In this document: in pieces, positions 1 through 41,833 of the stretch
Numbering within the stretch: position 1 is the stretch's first letter
Layout: the number at the start of each line of letters is the position of its first letter
Source of the DNA: Frigoribacterium sp. CFBP 13712
GTDB lineage: Bacteria; Actinomycetota; Actinomycetes; Actinomycetales; Microbacteriaceae
Reading direction: 5' to 3'
NCBI RefSeq assembly: GCF_014842255.1
Contig: NZ_JACYVH010000002.1
Coordinates: 66,538-110,517 of the forward strand
Length of the DNA: 43,980 bases
Position numbers and translations under genes: made by a program
The notes under the pieces: generated by a model
Told to the model about the DNA's origin: nothing
Database searches by the model: none
Seen by the model: only the letters and a program-made list of their open reading frames with translations

Positions 1-15
1 AGGGAGGCGCGGGTC
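1..15 (+). repeat. Dispersed repeat copy, cut by window edge
   Basis: The window opens with GGGAGGCGCGGGTC, one base off the AGGAGGCGCGG core of the dispersed repeat. It sits immediately downstream of the stop codon of the minus-strand aldo/keto reductase gene, a common place for this repeat. Confidence 0.6.
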
Positions 16-844
16 AGCCGACGTCGTCGGGGTGCGACCCGGTGCGCTGCCCCGACTCGAGGGCGGCGATCGCTTTGAGGTCGGCGTCGTCGAGCTCGAA
101 GCCGAACACGTCGAGGTTCGAGCGGATGCGCGACGCGGTGGCCGACTTGGGGATCACCACGAGTCCCTGCTGCAGGTGCCAGCGGATCACGACCTGCGCG
201 ACGCTCACACCCAGCCGATCGGCGATGCCGAGCAGCACCTCGTCGTCGAGGATCCGCCCGCGGGCGAGCGGCGACCACGCCTCGGTGACGATGCCGTGCG
301 CGTCGCCGAAGGCCCGCAGCTCGCGCTGGGGCAGCCACGGGTGCGCCTCGACCTGGTTCACGACCGGCACGACGTCGGTCTCGCCGAGCAGCCGCTCGAG
401 GTGCGGCACCTGGAAGTTGCTGACGCCGATCGACCGTGCCCGCCCCTCGGAGCGGATGGTCTCGAGGGCCCGATAGGTCTCGACGTACCGGTCGCGGCTC
501 GCCGCGGGCCAGTGGATGAGGTAGAGATCGACGTGGTCGGTCTCGAGCAGGCGGAGGCTTTCGTCGAACGCGCGCAGGGTCTCGTCGTAGCCGTGCTCGG
601 TGTTCCAGACCTTGGTCGTCAGATAGACGTCGTCGCGATCGAGGCCGGAGGCGCGCATCGCCCGCCCGACGCCCGCCTCGTTGCCGTAGAGGGTCGCGGT
701 GTCGATGTGCCGGTAGCCCTCGTCGAGGGCGATGCGGACGACCCTCTCGGCCTCGTCGTCGGCGACCTTGTAGACGCCGAGTCCGAGCTGGGGGATGGTC
801 GTGCCGTCGTTCAGTGCGACGCGGGGGATCTGGATGTCGGGCAT
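14..844 (-). CDS. Aldo/keto reductase, 2,5-diketogluconate reductase-like
   Basis: A 276-residue cytosolic NADPH-dependent oxidoreductase of the aldo/keto reductase superfamily, which reduces aldehydes and ketones. The catalytic tetrad is visible: D48 and Y53 in GYRHIDTATLYGNE, K78 in LTTKVWN and H111 in LYLIHWP. A C-terminal IPKSATASRIRSN stretch is the usual 2'-phosphate-binding loop for NADPH. Length and order match the AKR5-type enzymes that include 2,5-diketo-D-gluconate reductases, but the natural substrate cannot be read from the sequence. The start chosen is the ATG at 844, which gives MPDIQIPRVALNDGTTIPQLG, a typical N-terminus. It lies 32 bases behind the MFS gene on the same strand and is probably co-transcribed with it; a dispersed repeat fills the gap. 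Confidence 0.93.
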   Translation of the reverse strand: MPDIQIPRVALNDGTTIPQLGLGVYKVADDEAERVVRIALDEGYRHIDTATLYGNEAGVGRAMRASGLDRDDVYLTTKVWNTEHGYDETLRAFDESLRLLETDHVDLYLIHWPAASRDRYVETYRALETIRSEGRARSIGVSNFQVPHLERLLGETDVVPVVNQVEAHPWLPQRELRAFGDAHGIVTEAWSPLARGRILDDEVLLGIADRLGVSVAQVVIRWHLQQGLVVIPKSATASRIRSNLDVFGFELDDADLKAIAALESGQRTGSHPDDVG

Positions 845-860
845 GCATCGATCCTGCCAG

Positions 861-880
861 CCCGAGGAGGCGCGGGTCAG
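861..880 (+). repeat. Dispersed AGGAGGCGCGG repeat
   Basis: An exact core at 865-875 inside CCCGAGGAGGCGCGGGTCAG fills nearly all of the gap between the MFS stop codon and the aldo/keto reductase start. Its reading direction is opposite to the two genes. Confidence 0.9.
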
Positions 881-5335: not shown

Positions 5336-5372
5336 GGCGCGGGTCGGGAACGAAACCCGACCCGCGCCTCCT
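5336..5372 (+). terminator. Hairpin built on the dispersed repeat, between nrdE and nrdF
   Basis: A perfect 13-base-pair stem (5336-5348 with 5356-5368) encloses the loop AACGAAA. The right arm contains an exact repeat core (CCGCGCCTCCT, 5362-5372). No T-run follows, so it could act as a partial terminator, an mRNA stabiliser or an attenuator that sets the nrdE/nrdF ratio. Confidence 0.6.
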
Positions 5373-5374
5373 GA

Positions 5375-6406
<1,032 letters not shown>

Positions 6407-6417: not shown

Positions 6418-6446
6418 AGGAGGCGCGGCTCGCTCCGAGCCCCGCC
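6418..6446 (+). terminator. First terminator hairpin after nrdF (repeat-based)
   Basis: An exact repeat core at 6418-6428 forms the left side of a stem, GGCGCGGCTCG (6422-6432) with CGAGCCCCGCC (6436-6446), with one mismatch and a three-base loop. Confidence 0.65.
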
Positions 6447-7705: not shown

Positions 7706-8965
7706 TCAGGCGCCGGCGAGCAGCGCGGTGCGGATCGCCGCGACGCCGAGCCGCACCTCGGCGAACGTCGTCGAGAGCGGGGAGAGTCCGATGCGCAGCC
7801 CGTCCGGGTTGCGGAAGTCGGGCACGACTCCCTCCTCCCAGAGCGCAGCCACGACGGCACGGAACGCCGGGTGCCGCACCGTCACGTGACCGCCCCGCGA
7901 CTCGGCTGAGCGCGGCGTCGCGACCTCGACCCCGAGCGGCACCAGCCACGCGTCGACCAGCTCGAAAGCGTAGTCCGTCAGCGCGAGCGACTTGGCGCGG
8001 ATCGCGTCGATGCCCGCCTCCTCGACCAGCTCGAGCATGTCGCCGAGCGGCAGCATGCCGACGATCGGCGGGGTGCCGCTGATGAACCGCCGGATGCCCG
8101 ACGCCGGCGTGTAGCCGTCGGCCATCGCGAACACGTCGGCCGCTCCCATCCACCCCTGGATCGGCTGCTCGAGCGACGGCAGCAGATCGCTCCGCGCGTA
8201 GAGGAACGCCGGCGCTCCGGGCCCGCCGTTCAGGTACTTGTACGTGCAGCCGACGGCCACGTCGACGCCCCATTCGTCGAGCCGCATCGGCACCACGCCG
8301 ACCGAATGGCACAGGTCGAACAGCACCAGCGCGCCCACGTCGTGCACGAATCGCGTGATGGCGGGCATGTCGACCAGGTAGCCCGAACGGTACGACACGT
8401 GGTTGACGAGCACGACGGCGGTGTCCTGCCCGACCACGTCGGCCAGCAGATCGACCGTGACGCCGAGAGCCGGGTCGACGTGCACCCACCGCACGGTGGC
8501 CCCCCGCTCGCGGGCGATGCCCTCGACGACGAAGCGGTCGGTCGGGAACTGGTCGTCGTCGATCACGATCTCGTGCCGATCGGGCCTCGCCGCCAGCATC
8601 GCCCGGATCGCCTTGTAGAGCAGCACCGTCGTCGAGTCGCCCACGACCGTCTGCCCGGCGGCGGCTCCGAGCGCCGCCGCCCCGATGCGGTCGCCGAGCT
8701 CGGTGGGTCGCGCCATCCACTGCTCGTCCCATGAGCGGATCAGCCGGCTGCCCCAGTCGTGCCGCACGAACGACGCGATCCTCTCGGGCGTGACCCGCAG
8801 CGGCCGCCCGAGCGAGTTGCCGTCGAGGTACGAGACGACGTCGCCGTCCGGCGCGAACCGGTCGACGAACCGCGCGAGCGGGTCGGCGGCGTCGAGCTGC
8901 TCGGACGGCAGCTCGGGCGTCGGGGGAGCGGTGGCAGGGCCGGGGGTCGAGGAGGCGCGGGTCAC
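7706..8965 (-). CDS. kynU: Kynureninase
   Basis: A 419-residue PLP enzyme that cleaves kynurenine to anthranilate and alanine in tryptophan breakdown. The PLP lysine is K243 in GCTYKYLNGGPG. The upstream DLCHSVG motif, the GDSTTVLLYKAI phosphate-binding segment and the IQGWMG substrate-site segment all match the family. The start is the GTG at 8965, which overlaps the amidohydrolase stop as GTGA, so the two are translationally coupled. The first codons (VTRASST) are made by a dispersed repeat copy, and residues 1-22 are a low-complexity leader before the conserved protein. No tryptophan dioxygenase or kynurenine monooxygenase gene lies nearby. Confidence 0.95.
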   Translation of the reverse strand: MTRASSTPGPATAPPTPELPSEQLDAADPLARFVDRFAPDGDVVSYLDGNSLGRPLRVTPERIASFVRHDWGSRLIRSWDEQWMARPTELGDRIGAAALGAAAGQTVVGDSTTVLLYKAIRAMLAARPDRHEIVIDDDQFPTDRFVVEGIARERGATVRWVHVDPALGVTVDLLADVVGQDTAVVLVNHVSYRSGYLVDMPAITRFVHDVGALVLFDLCHSVGVVPMRLDEWGVDVAVGCTYKYLNGGPGAPAFLYARSDLLPSLEQPIQGWMGAADVFAMADGYTPASGIRRFISGTPPIVGMLPLGDMLELVEEAGIDAIRAKSLALTDYAFELVDAWLVPLGVEVATPRSAESRGGHVTVRHPAFRAVVAALWEEGVVPDFRNPDGLRIGLSPLSTTFAEVRLGVAAIRTALLAGA

Positions 8966-8966: not shown

Positions 8967-10020
8967 AGGTCTTCTCCAGCAGGGTGTCGGGGGTGATCAC
9001 GGTGGCGGTGGCCAGCCAGTCGGCGGCGGCGCCGGGGTCGTCGGGTCGGGGCGGCGGCGTCGGGATCCAGGTGGCTCGCGAGGTGCCGCGACCGCTCTCG
9101 CCCGCTCCGCCGAGCTGAGCGCCCGCCGTCAGCGCGTGCAGCAGCAGACCGAGGCCGAGCCCGGCCCGCTGCAGGGCCCGCAGCTCGCGCGCGTTGACCC
9201 CGACGGGCAGATCGCCGTTGCCGAGGTCGGTGCCGTAGAGCACGTGACCGCCGGCGGCCCGGAACCTCGAGAGGTTCTCGACGGCGATGTCGTGCGCCGC
9301 GCCTCCTCGGCCGTGTCCGTGGATGTCGAGGGTGCTGATCCAGCTGGTGCGCGCGGCGAGGCGTTCGACGAGCTCGTCGTCGAGACGCTCGCTGAAGGGG
9401 GTGTGCGCGAAGCGGGCCACTCCGGCCGCGAGGGCGCGTCGGGCCTGCCCGACCCCCTGCACGTGAGCGACCGGCACGAGCAGATGCTCGTTGGCGGCGT
9501 CGACGATCGCCCGCAGCGTGACGTCGTCGAACACCGGCCCGACGTCGGAGTTGAGGCTGATCTTGACGAACGACGCCCCGAGGTCGCGCATCCGCTCGAC
9601 CTCGCGTCTCGCGCTCGCGGCGTCGGTCACGACCACGGCCGCGGTGTCGGGCGCCCACCCGGCGCGGCTCGGGTAGCCGGCGGGCGGGCAGAGCAGCCCG
9701 CCGGCGACGCGCACCTCGGGCCAGCGGGGGTCGAGGCGCCCGTGCTCGGGCCAGAGCGACGCGGTGTCCGGATCCCAGCCGAGGTCGTCGACCCGGGCGA
9801 TGCCGCCGGCCGCGAGGGCGAGGGGATCGATCAGCCCGAGGTGCACGTGCGAGTCCGTGAAGGGCGCGAGCAGGGTGCCGGGCAGATGCGGCAGGCCGTC
9901 GTGCACAGCGCGGGGCGGACCGAGCAGGTCGATGTCGCCCGAGACGCGCACCACCGAGCGACCCGACCACGCACCCGACCAGGCGTGATCGACCGTGACG
10001 AACCGCGCCTCCTGGGTCAT
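8962..10020 (-). CDS. Amidohydrolase-family metal hydrolase
   Basis: A 352-residue protein of the amidohydrolase superfamily (imidazolonepropionase-like). The first metal-binding H-x-H is H58 and H60 in TDSHVHLG. Later ligand candidates are the lysine of ASFVKISLNSD, the histidines of VPVAHVQG and FAHTPFSE, and the aspartate of LYGTDLGNG. The four-base overlap with kynU suggests a shared pathway, for example hydrolysis of an amide in tryptophan/kynurenine breakdown such as N-formylkynurenine; that role is inference, since known kynurenine formamidases belong to other folds. The C-terminal third has a proline-rich low-complexity loop (TWIPTPPPRPDDP). The mRNA is probably leaderless. Confidence 0.85.
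   Translation of the reverse strand: MTQEARFVTVDHAWSGAWSGRSVVRVSGDIDLLGPPRAVHDGLPHLPGTLLAPFTDSHVHLGLIDPLALAAGGIARVDDLGWDPDTASLWPEHGRLDPRWPEVRVAGGLLCPPAGYPSRAGWAPDTAAVVVTDAASARREVERMRDLGASFVKISLNSDVGPVFDDVTLRAIVDAANEHLLVPVAHVQGVGQARRALAAGVARFAHTPFSERLDDELVERLAARTSWISTLDIHGHGRGGAAHDIAVENLSRFRAAGGHVLYGTDLGNGDLPVGVNARELRALQRAGLGLGLLLHALTAGAQLGGAGESGRGTSRATWIPTPPPRPDDPGAAADWLATATVITPDTLLEKTS
9297..9307 (-). repeat. Dispersed repeat inside the amidohydrolase gene
   Basis: An exact core, read in frame as RGGAA within HGHGRGGAAHD. Confidence 0.85.
10003..10013 (-). repeat. Dispersed repeat at the amidohydrolase start
   Basis: An exact core lies five bases inside the gene and encodes QEAR of the N-terminus MTQEARFVTV. 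Confidence 0.85.
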
Positions 10021-11877: not shown

Positions 11878-13270
11878 CCCGACCCGGCGCCCCCTTCGCC
11901 GAACCCGTCCGCTCGCGCTCGTCGCCGCGACCGCCGCGACGCTCGTCGTCCTCACGGCCTGCAGCGCCCCCGGCTCGTCGTCCGGCTCCGACACCGGCTC
12001 CGACGACGCCGCGCCGACCGACGCCTCGACCCCGCACGGCTACGTCGAGGGAGCGAGCGAGGGCAGCGAACCGCAGCTCCGACTCGCCACGATCGACCCC
12101 GAGGGCCGCGTCGACCTGCTCGACCTGCTCACCGGCGACGACGAGACCGTGGCCGAGCTGGAGCCGGCCGACGGTCTCTCGACCGACGGACGGTTCGTGT
12201 TCGCGACCCGCGCCTCCGGAACGGTCGACGTCGTCGACACCGGGGTCTGGACCGTCGACCACGGCGACCACTCGCACTACTACCGCGCCGAGGCGCGACA
12301 GGTCGGCTCGATCGAGGCGACGGCAGGGGCAGCCGAGGAGGCGCGGGTCGTTCCGGGCGCGGATCTCACCACCGTGCGGTTCCCGGCCTCGGGGGAGCAG
12401 ATCGTGCTCGACACCGAGGCGCTGGGCGCCGGCGAGATCGACGAGGTGGCCCGCTTCGACGGCGCCGGCACCGGTGCCCTCGGCGGCGAGGGCGTGCTCG
12501 TGCCGTTCGGCGACTCGCTGCTGTCGAGCACCGTGGCCGATCTCGGGCCGGACGTCGTCGCGGTGCTCGACCGCGAGGGGCGACCCGTCGACGGGGCCGA
12601 GGCCGAGTGCGTGGACCCGCGCGGCAGCATCGAGACCCGGGTGGGCGTCGTGATCGGCTGCGCCGACGGGGCCCTGCTCGCCACGACGGGCGAGGCCGCG
12701 GCCGATGCCGGCGACGGCGAGGGGGCTACCGGCGAGGGGTCGGGCGAGGCCGACGCCGATGCGGACGCCGCAGACGCCGCGGCCTCCGCTCCGGTCGTGT
12801 TCGAGCGCATCCCGTACCCCGAGGCCGTCGCGGCCGACGAGCGCGCCGTCGCCTTCGACGGACGTCGCGGCCGACCGACCGTCGCGGCGGTCGCGGGCGA
12901 CCGGGGCGCCTGGCTGCTCGACACCCGCGAGCGCAGCTGGTCGCTCGTCGAGACCCCCGCGCCGCTCGTACGCGTGTCGGCCGTCGACGACTCCGACGGC
13001 CACGTCGTCGGGCTCGACGCCTTGGGGCGCGTCGTCGTGCTCACCCGCGACGACGGGGTCGTCGCGACCACGGACCCCCTGCTGCCCTCCACCGTCGCAG
13101 ACGACACCGCCCTGGCCGGCGTCTCGCTCTCGGTCGACGCCAGCCGCGCCTACCTGAACGGCCCGCTCGAGGGCGCCGTCTTCGAGATCGACTACGCCGA
13201 CGGCGGCCGGGTGTCGCGCACCTTCGACCACGTCGACGCGCCGTCCTTCGCCGCGGAGACCGGCCGATGA
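11852..13270 (+). CDS. AztD-like secreted lipoprotein with His-rich loop
   Basis: A 472-residue predicted lipoprotein: basic N-terminus, hydrophobic core and lipobox LTAC with C37. The body looks like a beta-propeller and shares its layout with the downstream AztD, for example the GR-V-V...V-DTG-WT block. It carries the metal-binding-looking segment DHGDHSHYY (H137, H140, H142) where AztD has a single histidine. I infer an extracellular zinc-binding partner of AztC, a second AztD-type metallochaperone. Residues about 285-315 are an Asp/Ala/Gly-rich linker. A dispersed repeat encodes AEEARV near 161-166. The GTG start at 11852 has AAAGG upstream and overlaps aztB; the stop overlaps aztC as ATGA. 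Confidence 0.82.
   Translation: MHPNDPSSDPTRRPLRRTRPLALVAATAATLVVLTACSAPGSSSGSDTGSDDAAPTDASTPHGYVEGASEGSEPQLRLATIDPEGRVDLLDLLTGDDETVAELEPADGLSTDGRFVFATRASGTVDVVDTGVWTVDHGDHSHYYRAEARQVGSIEATAGAAEEARVVPGADLTTVRFPASGEQIVLDTEALGAGEIDEVARFDGAGTGALGGEGVLVPFGDSLLSSTVADLGPDVVAVLDREGRPVDGAEAECVDPRGSIETRVGVVIGCADGALLATTGEAAADAGDGEGATGEGSGEADADADAADAAASAPVVFERIPYPEAVAADERAVAFDGRRGRPTVAAVAGDRGAWLLDTRERSWSLVETPAPLVRVSAVDDSDGHVVGLDALGRVVVLTRDDGVVATTDPLLPSTVADDTALAGVSLSVDASRAYLNGPLEGAVFEIDYADGGRVSRTFDHVDAPSFAAETGR
12336..12346 (+). repeat. Dispersed repeat inside the AztD-like gene
   Basis: An exact core within GCCGAGGAGGCGCGGGTCG, encoding AEEARV in a loop. Confidence 0.9.
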
Positions 13271-15635: not shown

Positions 15636-15656
15636 AGCCGAGGAGGCGCGGTGCCG
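15636..15656 (+). repeat. Dispersed repeat, intergenic
   Basis: GCCGAGGAGGCGCGGTGCCGG with an exact core at 15641-15651 just downstream of the minus-strand methyltransferase stop. Confidence 0.9.
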
Positions 15657-17717: not shown

Positions 17718-17758
17718 CAGGAGGCGCGGTGCCGGTCGGACCGGCGCCGCGCCTCCTC
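17718..17758. terminator. Hairpin of two opposed dispersed repeats
   Basis: Cores at 17719-17729 (plus) and 17747-17757 (minus) pair through an approximately 17-base-pair stem with one G-T wobble and a loop of a few bases. It stands between convergent genes and immediately after the nested hairpin. Confidence 0.85.
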
Positions 17759-23866: not shown

Positions 23867-23948
23867 CGCCGCGCCTCCTCGTGAGGGGGCCGCTGGAGAA
23901 CGGCCGTCGTCTATCCCGACGACGAACGGAATGACAGGAGGCGCGGGC
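23867..23948. repeat. Opposed dispersed repeats between lacI and SDR genes
   Basis: Exact cores at 23869-23879 (minus) and 23936-23946 (plus) stand 56 bases apart. They could pair at a distance; the sequence between them shows no gene. Confidence 0.85.
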
Positions 23949-25085: not shown

Positions 25086-28000
25086 TCAGGCGGAGGCGAG
25101 CACCTTCACGATGCGCTGCAGCGAGACGCTCTCGCTCGGCCGCAGGTCTTGAGTGAACAGGCTGAGGCGGAACTCCTCGAGCATCCACCGCGCGCGGGCG
25201 AGTGCAGGAGGCGCGGTGTCGGGCAGAGGGAACGTCCCGCCCGCGGTCTCGTACCGCTCGGTCGCCTGCTGCACCTCGCTCAGCCAGACGCGGTCGCGCT
25301 GCGGGTTCTCGAGCAGCTTCGTCGTGCGCCGGGTGATGCCGACGAGGTACACCGGCACGCGCTGCAGCTGCTGCAGCCCGGTCGCCGAGACGAAGCCGGG
25401 GTGGACGAGCCGATCGCGCTGCTGGCGCATGTCGGTCAGCGCCGCGAGGAGGTTCATCGACGTCGCGCCCTTGAGGGCCTTGTCGGCGTCGCGGGCGGCC
25501 GTCAGGGTGCGCGCCACCAGCGAGACGGTCTGGAACATCTGGTCCATCACGGCGCTCGAGACGCGGTCGCGGGCCGAGAGGAACTCCTTCTTCGTCATCA
25601 CCATGCCGTCGGGCTTCACCCGGAACAGGACGTCGTCGACGACCGCGACGAGGCAGTCCGCGAAGAGCGCCGCCGTGTTCTGGTACGGACTCGTCGCGAG
25701 GATCAGCTTCTCGGGGCTCGTCAGGTGCTGCTGCACGTAGGCGATCGGCGACGGGGTCGCGAGCATCAGCAGACGCCGCACGCCCTTCGGCGTCGCCTGC
25801 GCCTGGTCGACCGGCGTCGCCATCAGCGTGATCGAGACCGAGTCGCCGTGGTCGACCAGCGCCGGGTACGCGCGGATCACCGTGTCGCCGTGCCGGGTGT
25901 CGACCACGGCGGGCAGCTCGTCGAAGTCCCACGAGGTGATGCCGGTGCGCTCGAGGGAGTTCGCGGGGCGCTGGCCGGCGTCGGCGACCCGCCCCGCGCC
26001 TCCTCGGCCTCCGCGACCGCGGGCGTCGCGACCGCCGCCTTGCGTGACGCGCGCGACGCTGTCGCGGGTGGCGTCGCGCAGTCGGTGCTGCAGGGCGCCC
26101 AGGTCTTTGTCGCTGCCGACCTCGCGACCGCGGTCGTCGACCACGGCGTACGACACCCGGAGGTGCGCGGGCACGCGGTCGAGGTCGAAGTCGTCGACCG
26201 CGACGGGGGTGTAGGTGAGCCTCTTGATGACCGCCGCGAGGGTCGCCGTGAACGGCTCGGCGGTGTCGGCTGGGGGAGCGTCGGGCAGCTCGTCGGTGAT
26301 CTTCTTCGCCCAGTCGGCCGCGGGCACGACGTTCTTCCGGATCTGCTTCGGCAGCGACTTGATCAGCGAGGTCACCAGCTCGTCGCGGAGACCCGGCACC
26401 TGCCAGTCGAACCCGACCGGACGGAGGCGCGGCAGCAGCGGCAGGGGCACGACCACCGTCACGCCGTCGTCGTCGGCGCCGGGCTCGAACCGGTAGCGCA
26501 GCGTCAGCGTCTGGTCGCCCTGCTGCCAGGTGCTGGGGAACCCCTGCTCGTCGACGTCGGGCTCGTCGTCGCCGAGCAGGTCGGCCGCCGTCATGGTCAG
26601 CAGGTCGGGGGTGTCCTTCTGGGCCCTGCGCCACCAGCCCTCGAAGTCGCGGGTGCTGAACACGTCGGCCGGGATCCGCCGCTGGAAGAACTCGAACGCC
26701 GCGTCGCCGTCGACGAGGATGTCGCGGCGGCGGGTGCGTTCCTCCACCTCGGTCAGCTCGCGGATCAGCAGCTCGTTCTTGCGCTCGAACGCCTGCTGGG
26801 ACTCCCAGTCGCCCTCGACGAGAGCGTGCCGGATGAACAGCTCACGCGCGTAGGCCGGGTCGATGCGCGAGAACTGCACGCGCCTCCTCGGCACGATCGG
26901 CACGCCGTAGAGCGTGACCCGCTCGTAGGCGACGACGGCGCCCTGCTTCTTCTCCCAGTGCGGCTCGCCGTAGCTGCGCTTCACGAGGTCGAGGGCGAGC
27001 GGCTCGGCCCACGCGGGGTCGATGGCGCCGTTGACCCGCGCGAACAGGCGGCTCGTCTCGACCAGCTCGGCGCTCATGATCGCCGCGGGCTGCTTCTTCG
27101 CGAGCGCGCTGCCCGGGAACACCACGAAACGCGACTGCCGCGCCCCGACGTAGTCCTTCTTCTGCGGGTCGAACAGGCCGATCTGGCTGAGCAGACCGGC
27201 GAGCAGGCTGCGGTGCACCCCGTCGGGGTTCGTGCTGCGCTCGCCGATGTGCAGACCGAGGGGGCGGGAGGCGCGCGACAGCTGCCTGTACACGTCTTGC
27301 CATTCGCGGATCCGCAGGTAGTTGAGGAACTCGTCGCGGCAGAGGCGCTTGAAGGCGTTGCCGCTGAGCTCTTTCTGCTTGTCTTCGAGGTGGTTCCAGA
27401 GGTTCAGCAGGGTCATGAAGTCGCCGGCCGGGTCGCGGAACCGGGCGTGCTTCTCGTCGGCCTGGGCGCGTCTCTCGAGCGGGCGCTCGCGAGGGTCCTG
27501 GATGCTGAGGGCCGCGACGATGGCGAGCACCTCGCGGGTCGTGCCGTGCGTCTTCGACTCGACGACCATGCGGGCGAGGCGCGGGTCGATCGGCAGCCGG
27601 GTCAGCTGCTTGCCGATGCGGGTGATGTTGCCGCCCTGGGTGACGGCGCCGAGCTCGCGGAGGAGGTCGAGACCGTCTTTGATGCCGCGGGAGTCGGGCG
27701 GCTGGAGGAAGGGGAAGGCCGCGATGTCGCCGAGGTCGAGCGAGATCATCTGCAGGATGACCGCGGCGAGGTTCGTGCGGAGGATCTCGGGCTCGGTGTA
27801 CTCGGGGCGCTTCTCGAAGTCCGTCTCGCTGTAGAGGCGGATCGCGATGCCGCTGCTCGTGCGGCCCGAGCGACCGGAGCGCTGGTTGGCGCTGGCCTGC
27901 GAGATGGCCTCGATCGGGAGGCGCTGCACCTTGGCGCGGGTCGAGTAGCGGCTGATGCGGGCGGTGCCGGCGTCGATCACGTACTTGATGCCGGGCACGG

Positions 28001-28946
28001 TGAGGCTGGTCTCGGCGACGTTCGTGGCGAGGACGATGCGGCGGCGGGTGCCCGCGGTGGCGCTGGGCTGGAAGACGCGGTGCTGATCGGCGGCGCTGAG
28101 GCGGCCGTAGAGCGGCAGCACCTCGGTGTGCGGCAGGTTGCGGCCGCGGATGCTCTCTTCGGCGTCGCGGATCTCGTTCTCGCCGCTGAGGAACACCAGC
28201 ACGTCGCCGGTGCTCTCGCGGGCGAGCTCGTCGAGGCCCTCGTTGATGCCCTGCAGGTAGTCCTTGTCGTCGGCGCGCTGTCTGCGGTCGCCGGTCCGCG
28301 CCTCCTGCCGGTCGTCGTCAGGGTCGGTGTCGCCGTCGTCGTCGCCCGTGGTCTCGTCGGCGACGAGCGGGCGGTAGCGGACCTCGACCGGGTAGGTGCG
28401 GCCCGAGACCTCGACGATGGGGGCGTCGCCGAAGTGCTTCGAGAACGACTGCGGGTCGATGGTCGCGCTCGTGATGATGAGCTTGAGGTCGGGGCGGCGG
28501 GGGAGGAGCTGCTTGAGGTACCCGAGGAGGAAGTCGATGGTGAGGCTGCGCTCGTGGGCCTCGTCGATGATGATCGTGTCGTACCGGGTGAGGTCGCGGT
28601 CGAAGTGGATCTCGTTCAGCAGGATGCCGTCGGTCATCAGCTTGATCTGCGTGTCGGCGCCGACCTTGTCGGTGAAGCGGACCTGGTAGCCGACGACACC
28701 GCCGACCTCGTCGCCGAGCTCTTCGGCGATGCGCTCGCTGATCGTGCGGGCGGCGATGCGGCGGGGCTGCGTGTGGCCGATCTTCGTGCGGCCGAGCTCG
28801 AGGCAGATCTTCGGCAGCTGCGTCGTCTTGCCCGAGCCGGTGGCGCCGGCGACGATGACGACCTGGTTGTCGCGGATCGCGGCGGCGATGTCGTCGCGCC
28901 TCTGGCTGACCGGCAGCTCGGGCGGGTACGTGATGGTGGGGATCAT
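25086..28946 (-). CDS. hrpA: ATP-dependent RNA helicase HrpA
   Basis: A 1286-residue DEAH-box helicase that acts on mRNA and stalled or collided ribosomes in relatives. Walker A is GATGSGKT (34-41), the DEAH box 128-131, followed by the SAT motif (ITSATID) and the C-terminal helicase motif QRSGRSGR. The HA2/OB region and a large C-terminal DUF3418-type domain give the full HrpA length. Three exact dispersed-repeat cores, and a near copy at 26880-26890, lie in linkers: RQEARTGDRRQ between helicase motifs, RGGRGGAGRVADAG in the C-terminal part and DTAPPALAR near the end. The ATG at 28946 is chosen from the conserved start (ITYPPELPVSQRRDDI). Confidence 0.96.
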   Translation of the reverse strand: MIPTITYPPELPVSQRRDDIAAAIRDNQVVIVAGATGSGKTTQLPKICLELGRTKIGHTQPRRIAARTISERIAEELGDEVGGVVGYQVRFTDKVGADTQIKLMTDGILLNEIHFDRDLTRYDTIIIDEAHERSLTIDFLLGYLKQLLPRRPDLKLIITSATIDPQSFSKHFGDAPIVEVSGRTYPVEVRYRPLVADETTGDDDGDTDPDDDRQEARTGDRRQRADDKDYLQGINEGLDELARESTGDVLVFLSGENEIRDAEESIRGRNLPHTEVLPLYGRLSAADQHRVFQPSATAGTRRRIVLATNVAETSLTVPGIKYVIDAGTARISRYSTRAKVQRLPIEAISQASANQRSGRSGRTSSGIAIRLYSETDFEKRPEYTEPEILRTNLAAVILQMISLDLGDIAAFPFLQPPDSRGIKDGLDLLRELGAVTQGGNITRIGKQLTRLPIDPRLARMVVESKTHGTTREVLAIVAALSIQDPRERPLERRAQADEKHARFRDPAGDFMTLLNLWNHLEDKQKELSGNAFKRLCRDEFLNYLRIREWQDVYRQLSRASRPLGLHIGERSTNPDGVHRSLLAGLLSQIGLFDPQKKDYVGARQSRFVVFPGSALAKKQPAAIMSAELVETSRLFARVNGAIDPAWAEPLALDLVKRSYGEPHWEKKQGAVVAYERVTLYGVPIVPRRRVQFSRIDPAYARELFIRHALVEGDWESQQAFERKNELLIRELTEVEERTRRRDILVDGDAAFEFFQRRIPADVFSTRDFEGWWRRAQKDTPDLLTMTAADLLGDDEPDVDEQGFPSTWQQGDQTLTLRYRFEPGADDDGVTVVVPLPLLPRLRPVGFDWQVPGLRDELVTSLIKSLPKQIRKNVVPAADWAKKITDELPDAPPADTAEPFTATLAAVIKRLTYTPVAVDDFDLDRVPAHLRVSYAVVDDRGREVGSDKDLGALQHRLRDATRDSVARVTQGGGRDARGRGGRGGAGRVADAGQRPANSLERTGITSWDFDELPAVVDTRHGDTVIRAYPALVDHGDSVSITLMATPVDQAQATPKGVRRLLMLATPSPIAYVQQHLTSPEKLILATSPYQNTAALFADCLVAVVDDVLFRVKPDGMVMTKKEFLSARDRVSSAVMDQMFQTVSLVARTLTAARDADKALKGATSMNLLAALTDMRQQRDRLVHPGFVSATGLQQLQRVPVYLVGITRRTTKLLENPQRDRVWLSEVQQATERYETAGGTFPLPDTAPPALARARWMLEEFRLSLFTQDLRPSESVSLQRIVKVLASA
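25206..25216 (+). repeat. Dispersed repeat in hrpA (C-terminal)
   Basis: An exact core read in the hrpA frame as DTAPPA. Confidence 0.85.
25994..26004 (-). repeat. Dispersed repeat in hrpA (linker)
   Basis: An exact core in frame as RGGAGR within a Gly/Arg-rich linker. Confidence 0.88.
28296..28306 (-). repeat. Dispersed repeat in hrpA (helicase insert)
   Basis: An exact core encoding QEARTG inside a hydrophilic insert (TDPDDDRQEARTGDRRQ) just before the conserved YLQGINEGLDEL. Confidence 0.88.
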
Positions 28947-29020: not shown

Positions 29021-29039
29021 GCCGAGGAGGCGCGGGTCG
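29021..29039 (+). repeat. Dispersed repeat upstream of the acyl-CoA ligase
   Basis: The full-length form GCCGAGGAGGCGCGGGTCG with an exact core at 29025-29035, about 35 bases before the ligase -10 box. Confidence 0.92.
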
Positions 29040-29121: not shown

Positions 29122-30705
29122 ATGAGCACCCCCTCTCGCGCGACCGCGTCGGTCGCCGCGATCCTGGCCGAATCGGCCACCCGATTCGCCGACGACATCG
29201 CCGTCATCGTGGGAGCCGAGCGCACCTCCTACGCCCAGCTCTGGCAGCAGACCCTCGCCTACGCGGGCGCACTCCGCGCCAAGGGCGTGCACGAGGGCGA
29301 CCGCGTCGCCATGCTCGTGCCCAACGTCGCCGACTTCCCCCGCGTCTACTACGCGACGCTCGCCCTCGGCGCCGTCGCGGTCCCCGTCCACGCGCTGCTC
29401 AAACGGCACGAGATCGAGTACGTGCTGCGCGACAGCGGCGCGACGATCCTGGTCTGCGCGGCCCCGCTGCTCGCCGAGGGCGCCGCCGGCGCCTCCCTGG
29501 CCGGCGTCGACGTCGTCACGGTGCTCGCCCCGGGCACCTCCGTCGACCCGCACGGCACCGGGCACGACCGGCTCGAGGCGCTCGCCGAGGCCGCCGAGCC
29601 CCTCGACACGTACGTGCCCCGCGACCCGTTCGACACCGCGACGATCCTCTACACGAGCGGCACGACCGGTCAGCCGAAGGGCGCCGAGGGGTCGCACTTC
29701 GCCCTGATCGAGCAGGTCAACACGAACCTGATGAGCACCTTCGACATGCGGCGCGGCGACGTGCTGCTCGGCGCGCTCCCGCTGTTCCACACCTTCGGTC
29801 AGACCTGCACCATGAACACCGGGCTGCGCGCGGGCGCGACGATCGTCATGCTGCCGCGCTTCGACGGCGACGCGGCCCTCGCCGCCATGGTCGAGCACGA
29901 CTGCGCGATCTTCATGGGCGTCCCGACGATGTACATGGCCCTGCTCGACGCGGCCACGCGCTCGGAGGGCAGACCGCGCCTCCGCTACGCCGTCTCGGGC
30001 GGCGCCTCGCTGCCCCTGGCCGTCCTCGAGCGCTTCGAGCAGGTCTTCGGCGCTCCACTGCACGAGGGGTACGGGCTGACCGAGACGTCGCCCGTCGCGA
30101 CCTTCAACCACGTCGGCCGCACCCCGCGGCCCGGCACCATCGGCACGCCGATCTGGGGTGTCGACGTCGAGATCGCCGACCCCGCCGTCACCGACTCGAT
30201 CGCCCTGCTGCCGCACGGCGAGATCGGCGAGCTGGTGATCCGCGGCCACAACCTGATGAACGGCTACCTGAACCGGCCCGAGGACACCGCCGAGGCGATC
30301 GTCGACGGCTGGTTCCGCACCGGCGACCTCGGCACCAAGGACGACGACGGCTACCTCACGATCGTCGACCGCACGAAGGACATGATCATCCGCAACGGCT
30401 ACAACGTGTACCCCCGCCAGGTCGAGGAGGTGCTGGCCAAGCACCCCGACGTGACCATGGCGGCGGTCTTCGGCGTGCCGCACGAGATGCACGGTCAGGA
30501 GATCGAGGCGGCCGTCGTGCTGCGCGAGGGCGCCACGGTCGAGCCCGCCGAGCTCGTCACCTTCGTCTCCGACGCGATCGCGGCGTACAAGTTCCCGCGC
30601 GTGGTGCACGTCGTCGACTCCCTGCCGCTCGGCCCGAGCGGCAAGATCCTCAAGCGGGCGCTCGTCGAGCGGTTCGGCGTGGCGGAGCCGACCCGCGCCT
30701 CCTGA
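29122..30705 (+). CDS. Long-chain fatty-acid-CoA ligase-type enzyme
   Basis: A 527-residue member of the adenylate-forming (AMP-binding) superfamily, which activates a carboxylic acid to its acyl-CoA through an acyl-AMP. The phosphate loop is LYTSGTTGQPKG near 176-187, the YGLTETSP motif follows, then GWFRTGDLG and the hinge DRTKDMIIRNGYNVYPRQVEE. The catalytic lysine is in the final GPSGKILKR. The acid substrate is not readable; the prpDBC operon downstream suggests a fatty or short-chain acid, but as inference only. The last codons PTRAS and the TGA are made by the first unit of a repeat array. Confidence 0.9.
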   Translation: MSTPSRATASVAAILAESATRFADDIAVIVGAERTSYAQLWQQTLAYAGALRAKGVHEGDRVAMLVPNVADFPRVYYATLALGAVAVPVHALLKRHEIEYVLRDSGATILVCAAPLLAEGAAGASLAGVDVVTVLAPGTSVDPHGTGHDRLEALAEAAEPLDTYVPRDPFDTATILYTSGTTGQPKGAEGSHFALIEQVNTNLMSTFDMRRGDVLLGALPLFHTFGQTCTMNTGLRAGATIVMLPRFDGDAALAAMVEHDCAIFMGVPTMYMALLDAATRSEGRPRLRYAVSGGASLPLAVLERFEQVFGAPLHEGYGLTETSPVATFNHVGRTPRPGTIGTPIWGVDVEIADPAVTDSIALLPHGEIGELVIRGHNLMNGYLNRPEDTAEAIVDGWFRTGDLGTKDDDGYLTIVDRTKDMIIRNGYNVYPRQVEEVLAKHPDVTMAAVFGVPHEMHGQEIEAAVVLREGATVEPAELVTFVSDAIAAYKFPRVVHVVDSLPLGPSGKILKRALVERFGVAEPTRAS

Positions 30706-30765
30706 GGACGACCGGCGCCTCGTGAGCCGACCCGTGCCTCCTGAGGGCGACCCGCGCCTCCTGAG
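30690..30765 (-). repeat. Four-unit tandem array of the dispersed repeat
   Basis: Units begin at 30690, 30710, 30729 and 30749, a 19-20 base period, each close to GACCCGCGCCTCCTGAG. Units 1 and 4 carry the exact core; 2 and 3 have one or two changes. Unit 1 provides the C-terminus and stop codon of the ligase. Spacers are 2-3 bases, so this is not a CRISPR array. Confidence 0.92.
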
Positions 30766-30800
30766 GGCGACGGCCGTCGCGCGATGCGGCCCGTCGCGCC

Positions 30801-34596: not shown

Positions 34597-36624
34597 ATGA
34601 CCAACCGCCTCGCCGACGCCGTCAGCCCGTACCTCCGCTCGCACGCCGAGAACCCCGTCGACTGGCGGCCGTGGGGGCCCGAGGCCTTCGCCGAGGCCGC
34701 CCGTCGCGACGTGCCCGTGCTCGTCTCGATCGGCTACTCGACCTGCCACTGGTGCCATGTGATGGCGCGCGAGAGCTTCTCCGACCCCGTGCTGGCCGCG
34801 GCGCTGAACGACCGGTTCGTCGCGGTCAAGGTCGATCGCGAAGAGCACCCCGACGTCGACTCGAGCTACCTCGCCGCCGCGTCGGCCTTCACGCCGAGTC
34901 TCGGCTGGCCGCTCACCGCCTTCGCGACCCCTGAGGGGCGCGTCTTCTACGCGGGTACGTACTACCCGCCGACCCCGGTCGGCGAGCATCCGGCGTTCGG
35001 CCAGGTGCTCGACGCGGTCACCGAGGCGTGGCGCGATCGGCGCGGCGAGGTGGAGGCGACCGGCCGGGCGGTCCAGGAGGCGCTGGTCGGCCGAGCCGCG
35101 CCTCCTGCGGTCGTCGACGGGGTCGTCTCGCCGACCGCGGGGCCGGCGTCGATCGCACTCCCCACGACGGAGGCCCTGCGGTCGGCGGCCGGTCGGCTCG
35201 TCCCGTTCGAGGACACCGAGCACGGCGGGCTGGGCGGGGCGCCGAAATTCCCCACCGCGCCGCTGCAACTCGCGCTGCTGACGCTCGGGGCCGGGGGAGA
35301 CCCGGCGGCCGCGGGGCTCGCGTCGCGCACGCTGCGGGCCATGGCGGCGTCGCCCCTCCGCGACGCCGTCGAGGGCGGGTTCTTCCGGTACTCGACGCGA
35401 CACGACTGGGCCGACCCGCACTACGAGCGGATGCTCTACGACAACGCGCTGCTGCTGACGGCGTATTCGCGGGCGGCGGTGCTCGAGGGCGGCGCCGGGT
35501 CGCGCGAGGCGGGTGCTGCCGGTGCCGCGGCGGGCATCGGTTCGCGCGAGGCGGCCGAGGGCGTCGCGACGTTCCTGCTCGAATGGCTGCGCACCGCGCG
35601 CGGCGGCTTCGGGTCGGCGCAGGACAGCGAGAGCACGATCGACGGCCGCCGCGTCGAGGGCGGCTACTACCTGCTCGACGCGGCCGGGCGGGCCCGGCAC
35701 GAGGCGCCGCCCGTCGACGACAAGGTCCTCACCGGCTGGAACGGCCTCGCCGTCGCCGCACTGGCTGAGGCGGGGTGGCGACTCGATCACCCCGAGTGGA
35801 TCGCCGCCGCACGCGGAGCGGCCGACCTGCTGCTCGCCGAGCACGTCACGGCGGAGGGGCGACTGCTGCGCGCCTCCACGTCGTCCGGGGTGTCGAGCGC
35901 GTCGGCCGCCCTCGAGGACTACGGGATGCTCGCCGAGGGTCTGCTGCAGCTCGCCCTCGCGACCGGGGAGCCGCGCTACGCCGTCGAGGCGCGACGGCTC
36001 GTCGACCTGTGCCTCGACGCGGGGCGGGGCGGCGGAGGAGGCGCGGGTGCGGCGGGTGCCGATCGCCCGGTGTTCGCGGCTCCCGGCGGGGGCGACCCCG
36101 TGCTGCAGGCGCAGGGGACGGCGCTCGTGACCGACCCGTCGGAGGGCGCGTACCCCTCGGGTGTCGCGTCGCTCGCGACGGCGGCGTCGACCCTGCATCG
36201 CCTCACCGGGGAGGCGCGCTACCGGACCGCCGCGGAGCTCGCGCTGGCCCCCGCCGCCGCCGCTGCCGTCGACTCGCCGTCGGCGTACGGCACGACGTTC
36301 GGCCTGCTGGCCGACCTCGCCGCGGGGGCGACGCAGGTCGTGGTCGTGGTGCCCGACGCGGCTGCCGATACGGGTGCTGGCACGGAGGTACGCGCACTCG
36401 CGGCGCGGGTCAGGAGCGAGGTCGCACCCGGGCTCGTGGTGGCCGTCGTCGACGACTCCTCGGCGCGGGCCTTCGCCGAGGCCGGGTTCGAGCTCTTCGC
36501 CGGACGCCGCTCGACGCCCGGGCCCGAGACGGCGCTCGCGACGGCCTACGTCTGCCGCGACTTCGTCTGCCGGCTGCCCGTGACCGACGTCGCATCGCTC
36601 GACCGCGAACTCGCACAGGCCTGA
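34597..36624 (+). CDS. DUF255 thioredoxin-fold protein (YyaL/SSP411 family)
   Basis: A 675-residue cytosolic protein. The N-terminus ([25 protein letters not shown]) and the CxxC motif C50-H-W-C53 in [11 protein letters not shown] define the DUF255 thioredoxin-like domain; the remainder resembles a six-hairpin (alpha/alpha) barrel, with [31 protein letters not shown] and [16 protein letters not shown] typical. The cellular role of the family is unsettled. Low-complexity insertions occur at about residues 160-190, 300-318 ([19 protein letters not shown]) and 480-495 ([13 protein letters not shown]), and two of them hold dispersed-repeat cores. A start three codons upstream is possible, but the -10 spacing supports 34597. 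Confidence 0.9.
35096..35106 (-). repeat. Dispersed repeat in the DUF255 gene (first)
   Basis: An exact core, encoding RAAPPA in a variable linker. Confidence 0.85.
36036..36046 (+). repeat. Dispersed repeat in the DUF255 gene (second)
   Basis: An exact core, encoding GGAGA in a glycine-rich linker. Confidence 0.85.
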
Positions 36625-40040: not shown

Positions 40041-40046
40041 ACGCTA
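40041..40046 (-). promoter_or_regulatory. -10 box of metY
   Basis: TAGCGT, then TGGCGC, then the ATG; nearly the same bases as before the LacI-family gene. Confidence 0.6.
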
Positions 40047-40099
40047 GCCGCTGGTCGTCACGGGGCGACCGGGGAGGTAACAGAACTACACATGCCGAC

Positions 40100-40127
40100 C
40101 CGCGCCTCCTGAGCCGAGGAGGCGCGG
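40100..40127. terminator. Hairpin of two opposed dispersed repeats
   Basis: CCGCGCCTCCT (40100-40110) and AGGAGGCGCGG (40117-40127) form a perfect 11-base-pair stem with loop GAGCCG, three bases from the stop codon of the mannosyltransferase gene. Confidence 0.9.
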
Positions 40128-40129
40128 TG

Positions 40130-41833
40130 TCACTTCCAGCTGGGGATCCAGTAGTGGATGCGGATGAACTCCCAGTCGGCCAGCTGCGCCGTCCACAGCG
40201 GGTAGAAGAAGACGGTCGCCGCCACGGCGGCCACGAGCACGATGGCCGTCACGGCGATGCCGCTGCGCCGGCGGTCGATGTGATCGGTGCGCCGCCCGAG
40301 GACGATGCCGAGAACCGCGGCGAGCCCGAGCACGAGGTAGGGCTCGAACGCGATCGTGTAGAACTGGAAGACCGTGCGGTCGGAGAAGGCCAGCCAGGGC
40401 AGGTAGCCGGCCGCGACGCCGACGAGGATCGCCCCGTAGCGCCACTCGCGATGGCGGACGACCCGGTAGACCAGGTAGAGACAGGCCGCCACGGCCGCGT
40501 ACCAGATGACCGGGTTCGCCACCGAGGTGATCGCCTCGCCGCAGCGCGCGACCTCGCAGCCGCCCTGACCCTGGTCGAACCCCTGGTAGTACATGCTCGT
40601 CGGCCGCAGCATCAGCAGCCAGGTGAACGGGTTCGCCTGGTACGAGTGCGGGGTGGCGAGCCCGACGTTGAAGGCGTAGACGCCGGCCTCGTAGTGCCAG
40701 AAGTTCTGCACCACGTCGGGGACCCACGCGAGCGCGCCCGTCCAGCGCTGCCCGCCCTCTTCGACCCAGCTGCGGTAGTAGCCGCCGCCGGTGACGAACC
40801 AGCCCGTCCAGGTGGCGACGTACGCGACGAGGGCGATCGGCACCGTCAGGAGGAAGCTCACGGGGGCCTGCTTCCACAGGGTGCCCGTCAGCCAGAACTC
40901 GACCCCCGCACGTCGGCGGGCCAGCACGTCGACGACCACGGTGTAGACGGCGAAGACGGCCAGGAAGTACAGGCCGTTCCACTTGACCCCGGTCGCGAGA
41001 CCGCAGAGCAGCCCGGCGGCGAGCAGCCACGGACGCGACCAGATCGCCGGGCCCCAGGCAAGATCGCGACCGGCGCCGCGCCTCCTCGTCACCCAGTCGT
41101 CGAGTCGGCGCGACGTCCACCGCCGGTCGAGCAGCACCGCTCCGAACGCCAGCAGGCCGAAGAACATCACGAAGTTGTCGAGCAGCGACACCCGCGACAT
41201 GACGATCGCGTGCCCGTCGATGGCGAGCAGGAACCCGGCGAGGGTGCCGACGAGGGTCGAGCGCAGCAGGAGCGAGCCGATCACGGCGACGAGCGCGACG
41301 GCGAGGATCCCGACGACGGCCGTGCTGAGCCGCCAGCCCGCGGGGTCGTCCGGGCCGAGCGCCGCCATGCCCAGGCTGATCAGCCATTTGCCGAGCGGTG
41401 GATGGGCCACGAACGACGGGTCGGTCGTGAAGCCGTCGGCGCCGCCCGCGGCGAACGTCGCGTCGTAGTCGGCGGGCCAGGCGGCCTCGTAGCCGAGGTT
41501 GTGCAGCGTCCACGCGTCTTTGACGTAGTAGGTCTCGTCGAAGACCAGCGAGCCGGGCCGGCCGAGGTGCCAGAGCCGCAGCACCGCCGCGAGCAGGGTG
41601 ACGGCGATCGGGCCGCCCCACGCCCAGGCCCGACGACGCGCGGGCGTCGAGAGCAGGCGACCCCACCAGGCGTCGAGGCGGGTCATCGCGGGCGGGCCCT
41701 GGTGCGTCGACGAGGCGGCGTGAGCGGGCGTCGGGGAGTCGACCCGCGCCTCCTCGGCGTCCCGACCGTCGACCCGCGCCTCGACCCGTGCCTCGACGAG
41801 CGCGTCGGAGGCGCGCTCGGGCGGGGTCGTCAT
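40130..41833 (-). CDS. Protein O-mannosyltransferase, PMT family
   Basis: A 567-residue polytopic membrane enzyme that transfers mannose from a polyprenyl-phosphate donor to secreted proteins (GT39). The catalytic acidic pair is in FDETYYVKDAW, the HPPLGKWLISLG and LDNFVMFF motifs follow, and a C-terminal WTAQLADWEFIRIHYWIPSW segment is typical of actinobacterial Pmt. The first 49 residues are a hydrophilic leader (VEARVEARVDGRDAEEARVDS) made largely by dispersed-repeat sequence; an internal ATG at 41686 (MTRLDAWWGRLL) would give a more usual N-terminus. I keep 41833 since TACGAT lies 6 bases before it. Confidence 0.92.
   Translation of the reverse strand: MTTPPERASDALVEARVEARVDGRDAEEARVDSPTPAHAASSTHQGPPAMTRLDAWWGRLLSTPARRRAWAWGGPIAVTLLAAVLRLWHLGRPGSLVFDETYYVKDAWTLHNLGYEAAWPADYDATFAAGGADGFTTDPSFVAHPPLGKWLISLGMAALGPDDPAGWRLSTAVVGILAVALVAVIGSLLLRSTLVGTLAGFLLAIDGHAIVMSRVSLLDNFVMFFGLLAFGAVLLDRRWTSRRLDDWVTRRRGAGRDLAWGPAIWSRPWLLAAGLLCGLATGVKWNGLYFLAVFAVYTVVVDVLARRRAGVEFWLTGTLWKQAPVSFLLTVPIALVAYVATWTGWFVTGGGYYRSWVEEGGQRWTGALAWVPDVVQNFWHYEAGVYAFNVGLATPHSYQANPFTWLLMLRPTSMYYQGFDQGQGGCEVARCGEAITSVANPVIWYAAVAACLYLVYRVVRHREWRYGAILVGVAAGYLPWLAFSDRTVFQFYTIAFEPYLVLGLAAVLGIVLGRRTDHIDRRRSGIAVTAIVLVAAVAATVFFYPLWTAQLADWEFIRIHYWIPSWK
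41076..41086 (-). repeat. Dispersed repeat in the mannosyltransferase loop
   Basis: An exact core, encoding RRRGAGRD in a hydrophilic loop between membrane segments. Confidence 0.88.
41739..41795 (-). repeat. Dispersed repeat and partial copies in the mannosyltransferase leader
   Basis: An exact core at 41744-41754 (AEEARVDS) is followed by two partial copies, GACCCGCGCCTCGACC and GACCCGTGCCTCGACG, giving a small in-frame array that encodes VEARVEARVDG. Confidence 0.88.

What the first reader, a model, noticed from the sequence alone, without database searches (positions are those of the whole stretch)
1..41795. About thirty copies of a short dispersed repeat (core AGGAGGCGCGG) in 44 kb
Seen directly: exact 11-base cores on the plus strand at 865, 6418, 8950, 12336, 15641, 17719, 22871, 23936, 25206, 29025, 31056, 36036 and 40117, and on the minus strand (given by left coordinate) at 5362, 9297, 10003, 14324, 16801, 17747, 21345, 22899, 23869, 25994, 28296, 30693, 30752, 35096, 40100, 41076 and 41744, plus several one-mismatch copies. 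The copies at 14324 and 16801 sit in ordinary coding sequence and may be chance. At about 70% GC, independent bases would give roughly 0.2 hits on both strands. Many copies extend to GCCGAGGAGGCGCGGGTCG. There is no strong strand bias (13 against 17), which argues against a Chi- or KOPS-like polar motif. The core contains a perfect Shine-Dalgarno word. This looks like a REP-like or otherwise amplifying element. I know of no named family that fits; that is a limit of memory, not a search.
Basis: partly seen in the sequence, partly recalled or inferred. Interest (0 to 1): 0.9.

Follow-up and report, generated by a model that had tools for sequence, protein, structure and literature searches.

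The report
Uptake-sequence-like motif repeated across Frigoribacterium genomes
A short DNA word is repeated over a thousand times in this bacterium's genome, and its pattern most resembles the "self" tags that some bacteria use to choose which DNA to take up, though nobody has tested this here.

Summary
In detail: 30 exact AGGAGGCGCGG copies in the window against 0.15 in shuffles and 0.3-1.1 under an order-5 Markov model. The genome has 1152 copies (552/600 by strand) against 12 for the reversed word. All 16 Frigoribacterium genomes searched carry 383-1239. Curtobacterium has related words sharing GGAGGC that differ by species. Elsewhere among 199 Microbacteriaceae only G055 shows a large excess.

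The core is sharp: near-misses at its inner bases are no commoner than for the reversed word. Half or more of the copies lie in genes, 8-20 times what synonymous shuffling gives, often in variable linkers; others follow stop codons, some paired as hairpins. Close species differ mostly by substitution, with no insert of fixed size seen; RAYT is absent in 16 of 16 genomes. This argues against REP and for something working like a DNA uptake sequence (DUS/USS). The genome has ComEA, ComEC and Tad pilus genes. Against: the window's clade lost type IV pili without visible decay of the motif, extra conservation is modest, and uptake is untested.

The parts
865..875 (+). core copy between two minus-strand genes, next to the stop end of the MFS gene 877-2085
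   Evidence: exact in G204 and G209, first base G in G035, one inner change in G199
5362..5372 (-). core copy in an intergenic hairpin before nrdF (5405-6406)
   Evidence: exact in G204, first base changed in G035, one inner change in G209 and G199, the stem changing with it
6418..6428 (+). core copy just after nrdF
   Evidence: gap in G204
8950..8960 (+). core copy at a gene end in a variable stretch
   Evidence: one change in G204
9297..9307 (-). core copy in a called gene
   Evidence: exact in G204, first base G in G199, absent in G035, G209, G167
10003..10013 (-). core copy just after an ATG of a minus-strand reading frame
   Evidence: G204 has GGGAGGCGCGG
12336..12346 (+). core copy in a called gene, extended form
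14324..14334 (-). core copy in a called gene; may be chance coding
   Evidence: no alignment in G204
15641..15651 (+). core copy near a called gene start
16801..16811 (-). chance copy in conserved coding sequence
   Evidence: core identical in all six species aligned
17719..17757 (.). inverted pair (17719 +, 17747 -): hairpin between convergent genes
   Evidence: absent in G204, G035, G209
21345..21355 (-). core copy between genes (inside a doubtful 39-aa call)
22871..22909 (.). inverted pair (22871 +, 22899 -): hairpin after the stop of the SDR gene 22925-23821
   Evidence: G035 and G209 have other hairpins here
23869..23879 (-). core copy, intergenic
   Evidence: exact in G204 and G035, one change in G199
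23936..23946 (+). core copy, intergenic
   Evidence: G204 has CGGAGGCGCGG
25206..25216 (+). core copy near the 3' end of an HrpA-like helicase gene
   Evidence: exact in G204, varies at its ends in other congeners
25994..26004 (-). core copy in a variable linker of the helicase; G035, G209, G167 and G199 carry a copy elsewhere in the same linker
28296..28306 (-). core copy in a variable linker of the helicase
29025..29035 (+). core copy, intergenic, divergent genes
   Evidence: absent in the three congeners aligned
30693..30770 (-). tandem array of about 20-bp units with core copies at 30693 and 30752; the first unit overlaps the gene's stop codon
31056..31066 (+). core copy in a variable stretch of a prpD-like gene, extended form
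   Evidence: exact in G204, absent in the other four species aligned
35096..35106 (-). core copy in a called gene
   Evidence: exact in G204, G209, G167; CGGAGGCGCGG in G035 and G199
36036..36046 (+). core copy in a called gene; own and G204 carry about 21-27 bp that the others lack
40100..40127 (.). inverted pair (40100 -, 40117 +) after the stop of the PMT gene 40130-42526
41076..41086 (-). core copy in the PMT gene
   Evidence: exact in G199, changed in the other four
41744..41754 (-). core copy in a variable stretch of the PMT gene, extended form
   Evidence: of the five congeners aligned only G204 has it

Best explanation
The repeat works like a DNA uptake sequence: a species-specific self tag with a strict core of about 11 bases (GCCG-AGGAGGCGCGG-GTCG with softer flanks), recognised by a DNA receptor on the cell's competence machinery. 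DNA carrying the tag is taken up and recombined more often, so tags accumulate by molecular drive at any tolerant place: after stop codons, where two opposed copies can double as terminator hairpins, and in variable protein linkers. SHOWN: number, sharpness, lack of clear polarity, enrichment inside genes beyond protein and codon needs, placement in variable stretches, turnover mostly by substitution between close species, related words in a second genus that differ by species, and ComEA, ComEC and pilus genes. INFERRED: that a receptor exists, that it prefers this word, that these bacteria take up DNA, and that uptake bias is the force keeping the word.
For: Abundance: 383-1239 exact 11-mers in 16 of 16 Frigoribacterium genomes, reversed control 4-27. 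In genes, observed against synonymous shuffling: 45/2.9, 39/1.9, 61/3.6, 36/2.4, 28/2.5, 15/1.9 in six species' stretches. Sharpness: 83 exact copies in own and 20 near-misses at inner core positions; the reversed word has 23 such. Equal strands. Intergenic copies nearer gene 3' ends: 27 of 37, 18 of 22, 36 of 54. Exact inverted partners for 14 of 38 intergenic copies in own (control 0.2), 2 of 22 in G204 (control 0.2). Close trio: all 14 two-of-three sites differ by one base; indels 6 of 59 against 8.5% in control; third-species retention, pooled over the three choices, 90 of 104 against 0.76. Low-GC stretches of G203 are poor in copies: 16 in 5 stretches against 148 in 15, reversed word 2 against 6. 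Dialects in Curtobacterium: inverse counts, Spearman -0.40, n 60. PilT in 13 of 16 Frigoribacterium and 58 of 60 Curtobacterium; ComEC in 16 of 16; ComEA, ComEC and Tad genes in the window's genome, the parts used by naturally competent Micrococcus luteus (passages of PMC6370729). DUS papers describe permissive places, inverted pairs, many recent copies too diverged for point mutation, a sharp drop from exact to one mismatch, and dialects (passages).
Against: The window's clade (G000, G204, G200) lacks PilT and the PilB-type ATPase, as does Curtobacterium G254, yet the motif is about as sharp in G000 and G204 as in PilT-bearing G203. Extra conservation is modest (0.865 against 0.76), while Neisseria DUS are reported 97% identical against about 85%. 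With ascertainment removed, copies shared by own and G204 are not clearly kept better than controls in G035, G209 or G199 (G167 has too few) and sit at indels much more often (G035: genes 8 of 20 against 6 of 324, intergenic 12 of 17 against 16 of 66). The gene-end bias of USS is seen in own, G204 and G203 (53 of 145 in the first or last tenth) but over six species only 100 of 224 copies lie in the end fifths (40% expected), and in G110 32 of 36 are mid-gene. Copies share 20-24 bp runs beyond independent columns. Many other Microbacteriaceae have PilT without this word; whether they have words of their own was not established. Own-only stretches: 3 copies in 9.3 kb, uninformative. No competence is known to me in either genus.
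Confidence: 0.4

Rival explanations
1. It is the recognition site of an abundant intracellular DNA-binding protein (nucleoid organisation, repair or an unknown HIP1-like process); sites are held by selection for binding, and species dialects follow changes of the protein.
For: A strict core with softer flanks, near-misses at chance level, both strands, in and out of genes, kept in lineages without T4P.
Against: No candidate protein was searched for; why sites should avoid conserved protein stretches (24 sites shown) and low-GC stretches is unexplained, as are the hairpin pairs.
Confidence: 0.22
2. It began as the stem of a standard bidirectional terminator hairpin placed after stop codons; single copies are broken or half hairpins and spill-over into neighbouring genes.
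For: Intergenic copies cluster after stop codons, and opposed +- pairs lie mostly 27-33 nt apart; in Curtobacterium 20 of 23 opposed pairs have 27-29 nt spacing, with paired changes in the printed stems. In G204, copies in genes also have partners with up to 2 mismatches above control (9 of 39 against 1.8).
Against: Termination does not need one fixed sequence, and orthologous terminators change sequence freely; 25 of 45 copies in genes of own lie mid-gene (1.9 expected) and copies in genes of own have no exact partner above chance (2 of 45 against 1.2).
Confidence: 0.18
3. It is a REP-like or other small mobile element that is copied to new places by an unknown enzyme.
For: Subfamilies with 20-24 bp shared runs, tandem arrays, indels at copies against distant species, identical 44-nt hairpins at different places in Curtobacterium G244.
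Against: No RAYT in 16 of 16 Frigoribacterium genomes (Curtobacterium not searched); no insert of defined length seen in the alignments printed; close species differ mostly by substitution; many copies are shared between species; the flanks vary although the core does not.
Confidence: 0.12
4. Chance, codon use or protein sequence (for example Glu-Glu-Ala-Arg) explains the copies.
For: A few copies are plain conserved coding sequence (16801, 63594 and largely 53933 of the 244-kb stretch).
Against: 30 against at most 1.1 expected; 45 against 2.9 after synonymous shuffling; named loci of 17 other genera hold 0-4 core copies each.
Confidence: 0.01

Closest known systems
DNA uptake sequences of Neisseriaceae (DUS) and uptake signal sequences of Pasteurellaceae (USS)
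   Same: Around a thousand copies or more, strict core, both strands without clear polarity, inside and outside genes, permissive places, inverted pairs after genes, sharp drop from exact to one mismatch, species dialects with a shared core (passages of PMC3630211, PMC2397512, PMC1939737; abstract and findings of PMC2346458).
   Different: High-GC Actinobacteria; word unrelated; uptake untested; no receptor known; the window's clade lacks type IV pili; conservation weaker than reported for DUS; gene-end bias in some species only.
REP/BIME elements with RAYT (TnpA-REP)
   Same: Hundreds of short dispersed copies, some paired as hairpins outside genes.
   Different: No RAYT found; unit not palindromic in Frigoribacterium; half or more of the copies in genes; no fixed insert seen between close species.
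Hairpin terminators of actinobacteria lacking a U-tract (recalled, no call)
   Same: Hairpins just after stop codons.
   Different: One genome-wide sequence, and single copies inside genes.
HIP1 of cyanobacteria (recalled, no call)
   Same: Very abundant short word in and out of genes, lineage-restricted.
   Different: HIP1 is an 8-bp palindrome; this word is non-palindromic and longer.

Membership tests
DUS/USS | Hundreds to thousands of copies, far above expectation, on both strands | tested here: met
DUS/USS | Copies in genes as well as between them, at permissive places | tested here: met
   places judged on the 24 gene sites and 20 intergenic sites printed
DUS/USS | Sharp core: exact copies dominate over one-mismatch forms | tested here: met
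   inner core positions
DUS/USS | Motif more conserved than its surroundings | tested here: inconclusive
   weakly so in the close trio (90 of 104 against 0.76); not so against distant congeners
USS | Bias towards gene ends | tested here: inconclusive
   53 of 145 in end tenths in three species; 100 of 224 in end fifths over six, absent in G110
DUS/USS | Under-represented in acquired DNA | tested here: inconclusive
   low-GC stretches poor in copies in G203; own-only stretches 3 in 9.3 kb; 33 viral contigs hold the 17-mer once each
DUS/USS | Species dialects around a shared core | tested here: met
DUS/USS | Competence machinery present (ComEA, ComEC and a type IV filament) | tested here: met
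   ComEC 16 of 16; ComEA and Tad genes in own; PilT missing in own clade
DUS/USS | The word raises DNA uptake; a receptor binds it | not testable with these tools
   needs an experiment
REP with RAYT | RAYT transposase (PF01797) in the genome | tested here: not met
   0 of 16 genomes
REP with RAYT | Extragenic palindromic unit | tested here: not met
   45 of 83 copies fully inside gene calls in own; non-palindromic
REP with RAYT | Clean empty sites between close species | tested here: not met
Chi/KOPS | Orientation follows replication direction | tested here: not met
   no strong bias; origin and terminus were not mapped
Intrinsic terminators | Hairpins after stop codons | tested here: inconclusive
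   met for paired copies only: own 14 of 38 intergenic and 2 of 45 in genes, G204 2 of 22 and 2 of 39
Rfam RNA families | Match at gathering score | tested here: not met
   0 matches in the window

The most novel reading that the evidence does not exclude
Frigoribacterium and Curtobacterium hold the first uptake-sequence system found in Actinobacteria: related self tags with species dialects around a GGAGGC core, read by a receptor on a Tad or type IV pilus feeding ComEA/ComEC, built up by biased uptake independently of Neisseria and Haemophilus.
Probability: 0.36. Interest if true: 0.92.

Novelty: new variant of a known kind. Interest (0 to 1): 0.78.

Why it matters
The papers seen here describe uptake sequences for Pasteurellaceae and Neisseriaceae. 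A third, unrelated origin in high-GC Gram-positive bacteria, with dialects over dozens of species, would let the old question of why such tags exist (drive or benefit) be tested by comparison. Even if it is a protein-binding site or a terminator element, a sharp thousand-copy word that differs by species is unusual and needs an explanation.

Tried and rejected
Chance and Markov models, strong polarity, RAYT, Rfam and tRNA, phage carriage (33 viral contigs, one copy each). A first conservation profile looked like strong selection; I then saw that choosing copies exact in one species gives such a peak under neutral decay, repeated it with a third species and withdrew that claim. An apparent plus-strand bias in the listing is an artefact of a truncated listing. 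The output was cut, so its own-to-G204 tally was not used; one search replaced it. K-mer scans of pooled named loci (65 of the 80 loci; 15 unplaced or other loci left out) showed no comparable word in other genera, but the stretches are short and from one locus. Literature: in eight searches none of the papers listed was, by its title and start of abstract, on this word or on uptake sequences in these genera; the lists are capped and only open-access papers are held. I read passages of PMC3630211, PMC2397512, PMC1939737 and PMC6370729, and the abstract and findings section of PMC2346458. One search failed on a syntax error of mine.
Full report
OBSERVATION. The 30 positions given are exact. Shuffles give 0.15; Markov order 5 gives 1.14, or 0.30 when the copies are masked first. 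In the own genome (G000, 3.16 Mb, 40 contigs) the 11-mer occurs 552 + 600 times, its reversed control 7 + 5; the 16-mer with up to two mismatches 512 + 538, control 15 + 13. No tRNA and no Rfam family at gathering score was found in the window.

WHO HAS IT. In 199 Microbacteriaceae genomes the 14-mer with one mismatch stands at 901 in the own genome and 452-515 in three congeners; the others are at or near control level apart from three Curtobacterium (36-73, control 9-16) and G150 (54 against 22). The core GGAGGCGCGG: 926-1562 in four Frigoribacterium, 220-688 in three Curtobacterium, 399 against 142 in G055; otherwise near or below control, with small excesses such as 133 against 98 (G125) and 17 against 5 (G051). 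G055 had one copy in the 80 kb read, so its copies may be clustered. All 16 Frigoribacterium genomes carry 383-1239 copies of the 11-mer. In 65 named loci, Frigoribacterium has 41 core copies in 59 kb and the 17 other genera 0-4 each. The genus names come from contig lengths (listing).

DIALECTS. Curtobacterium stretches show CGGCCTGGAGGC(G/A)CGG, CGGACTGGAGGCGCGG or CGGACGGGAGGCTCGTGG by species, sharing GGAGGC with AGGAGGCGCGG. In 60 Curtobacterium genomes CTGGAGGCGCGG occurs 10-479 times, some genomes being at control level, and GGACGGGAGGC 21-584 times; the two are inversely related (Spearman -0.40, p 0.0015).

ANATOMY. Over 244 kb of the own genome the consensus is (G)CC(G)-AGGAGGCGCGG-G(T/G)CG, alike for copies in and between genes. 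Density is 1.69 per kb between genes and 0.20 in genes. Single changes at inner core bases are no commoner than for the reversed word: 20 against 23 in own, 27 against 32 in G204, 25 against 37 in G203, with 83, 61 and 118 exact copies. Within genes the word exceeds synonymous shuffling in all six sets: 45 against 2.9, 39 against 1.9, 61 against 3.6, 36 against 2.4, 28 against 2.5, 15 against 1.9. Intergenic copies lie nearer gene 3' ends (27 of 37, 18 of 22, 36 of 54) and opposed +- pairs are mostly 27-33 nt apart. Exact opposed partners: own 14 of 38 intergenic (control 0.2) and 2 of 45 in genes (1.2); G204 2 of 22 (0.2) and 2 of 39 (0.0). Gene-end bias is uneven: 53 of 145 copies in the first or last tenth in own, G204 and G203, but 100 of 224 in the end fifths over six species and 32 of 36 mid-gene in G110. 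Spacing is near random, slightly even in G204 and G035. In Curtobacterium 20 of 23 opposed pairs lie 27-29 nt apart; the printed ones read as near-perfect 44-nt hairpins with paired changes. Orientation shows no strong link with strand or GC skew: in 20 stretches of the complete genome G203, 47 + and 36 - where skew is positive, 38 + and 43 - where negative. Gene calls are from a home-made caller and have errors at gene ends.

HOW IT CHANGES. Own against G204 (about 88% identity): of aligned 10-mer cores 69 of 115 are exact in G204 and 69 of 99 the other way; control words 0.33 and 0.32. A conservation peak is not proof, because copies were chosen as exact in one species. Tested free of that, copies exact in own and G204 are not clearly kept better than nearby control words in G035, G209 or G199 (G167 has too few aligned sites), and lie at indels far more often: in G035 genes 8 of 20 against 6 of 324, intergenic 12 of 17 against 16 of 66. 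The alignments printed (24 gene sites; 20 intergenic sites) show mostly variable linkers and swapped terminator hairpins; at some linkers other species hold a copy at another spot. In the close trio G209, G110, G208 (93% identity): 30 sites in all three, 14 in two (each one base off in the third), 9 in one, 6 with indels, 32 not aligned; indels 6 of 59 against 8.5% in control; third-species retention pooled over the three choices 90 of 104 against 0.76. The recent differences printed show no insert of fixed size. Copies do share runs of 20 or more bases beyond independent columns (own 75 pairs against 7), so short-tract copying, for example by recombination, is not excluded. For Neisseria DUS, many recent copies are likewise too diverged for point mutation, which the authors ascribe to recombination (passages).

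MACHINERY. RAYT: 0 of 16. ComEC: 16 of 16. The own genome has adjacent ComEC and ComEA genes and Tad pilus genes (the TadE match is below its cut-off). PilB, PilT, PilC and two pilin-like genes lie together in G035. PilT is over its cut-off in 13 of 16 Frigoribacterium, missing in G000, G204 and G200, and in 58 of 60 Curtobacterium, missing in G254 and in the incomplete G233. PilT is also in many relatives without the word (98 of 199 over cut-off in all), so it does not predict this word. Micrococcus luteus is reported to transform with Tad-type pili plus ComEA and ComEC (passages), so loss of type IV pili need not end uptake; this step is inferred.

JUDGEMENT. Number, sharpness, lack of clear polarity, use of tolerant places in and out of genes, hairpin pairs, turnover and dialects together match published uptake sequences better than any other known kind that I compared. 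The weak points are the lack of type IV pili in the window's own clade without visible decay, the modest conservation, the uneven gene-end bias and the lack of any uptake experiment. I give 0.40 to uptake (0.42 before the gene-end bias was rechecked), 0.22 to another binding protein, 0.18 to terminator hairpins with spill-over, 0.12 to a mobile element.

Noticed in passing
L114-L116 (G209): A second over-represented word, TCGAGGGCGGGT (GAGGGCGGGT 13 against 1.0 expected in 51 kb), twice close together in one stretch printed.
   Followed up: no
L123 (G200): CGCATCGATGCGTA-like word, GCATCGATGC 8 counts over both strands in 20 kb against 0.28 expected (the word is a palindrome, so 4 places).
   Followed up: no
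L176-L179 (G150): CGTGGAGTCTC, 8 copies in 80 kb against 0.13 expected, in a PilT-bearing genome of another genus.
   Followed up: no
L164-L167 (G031, Curtobacterium): TACGGCCAGCA 11 times in 80 kb against 0.1 expected.
   Followed up: no
own genome, L124-L133 and window: GGGGGGGGGG counted 10 times over both strands in 244 kb against 0.01 expected, overlapping counts included.
   Followed up: no
G000, G204, G200: Loss of the type IV pilus ATPases in the window's species and its two nearest relatives by DNA match, in an otherwise piliated genus.
   Followed up: partly
own stretch 104906-104925 (bases counted from the window start), window 30693-30770, G000:C4:114168-114213: Tandem arrays of the motif with 19, about 20 and 15 bp period; the first two at gene ends.
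   Followed up: partly
L192-L195 (G055): 399 core copies genome-wide but one in 80 kb, which suggests local clusters, perhaps a repetitive gene.
   Followed up: no
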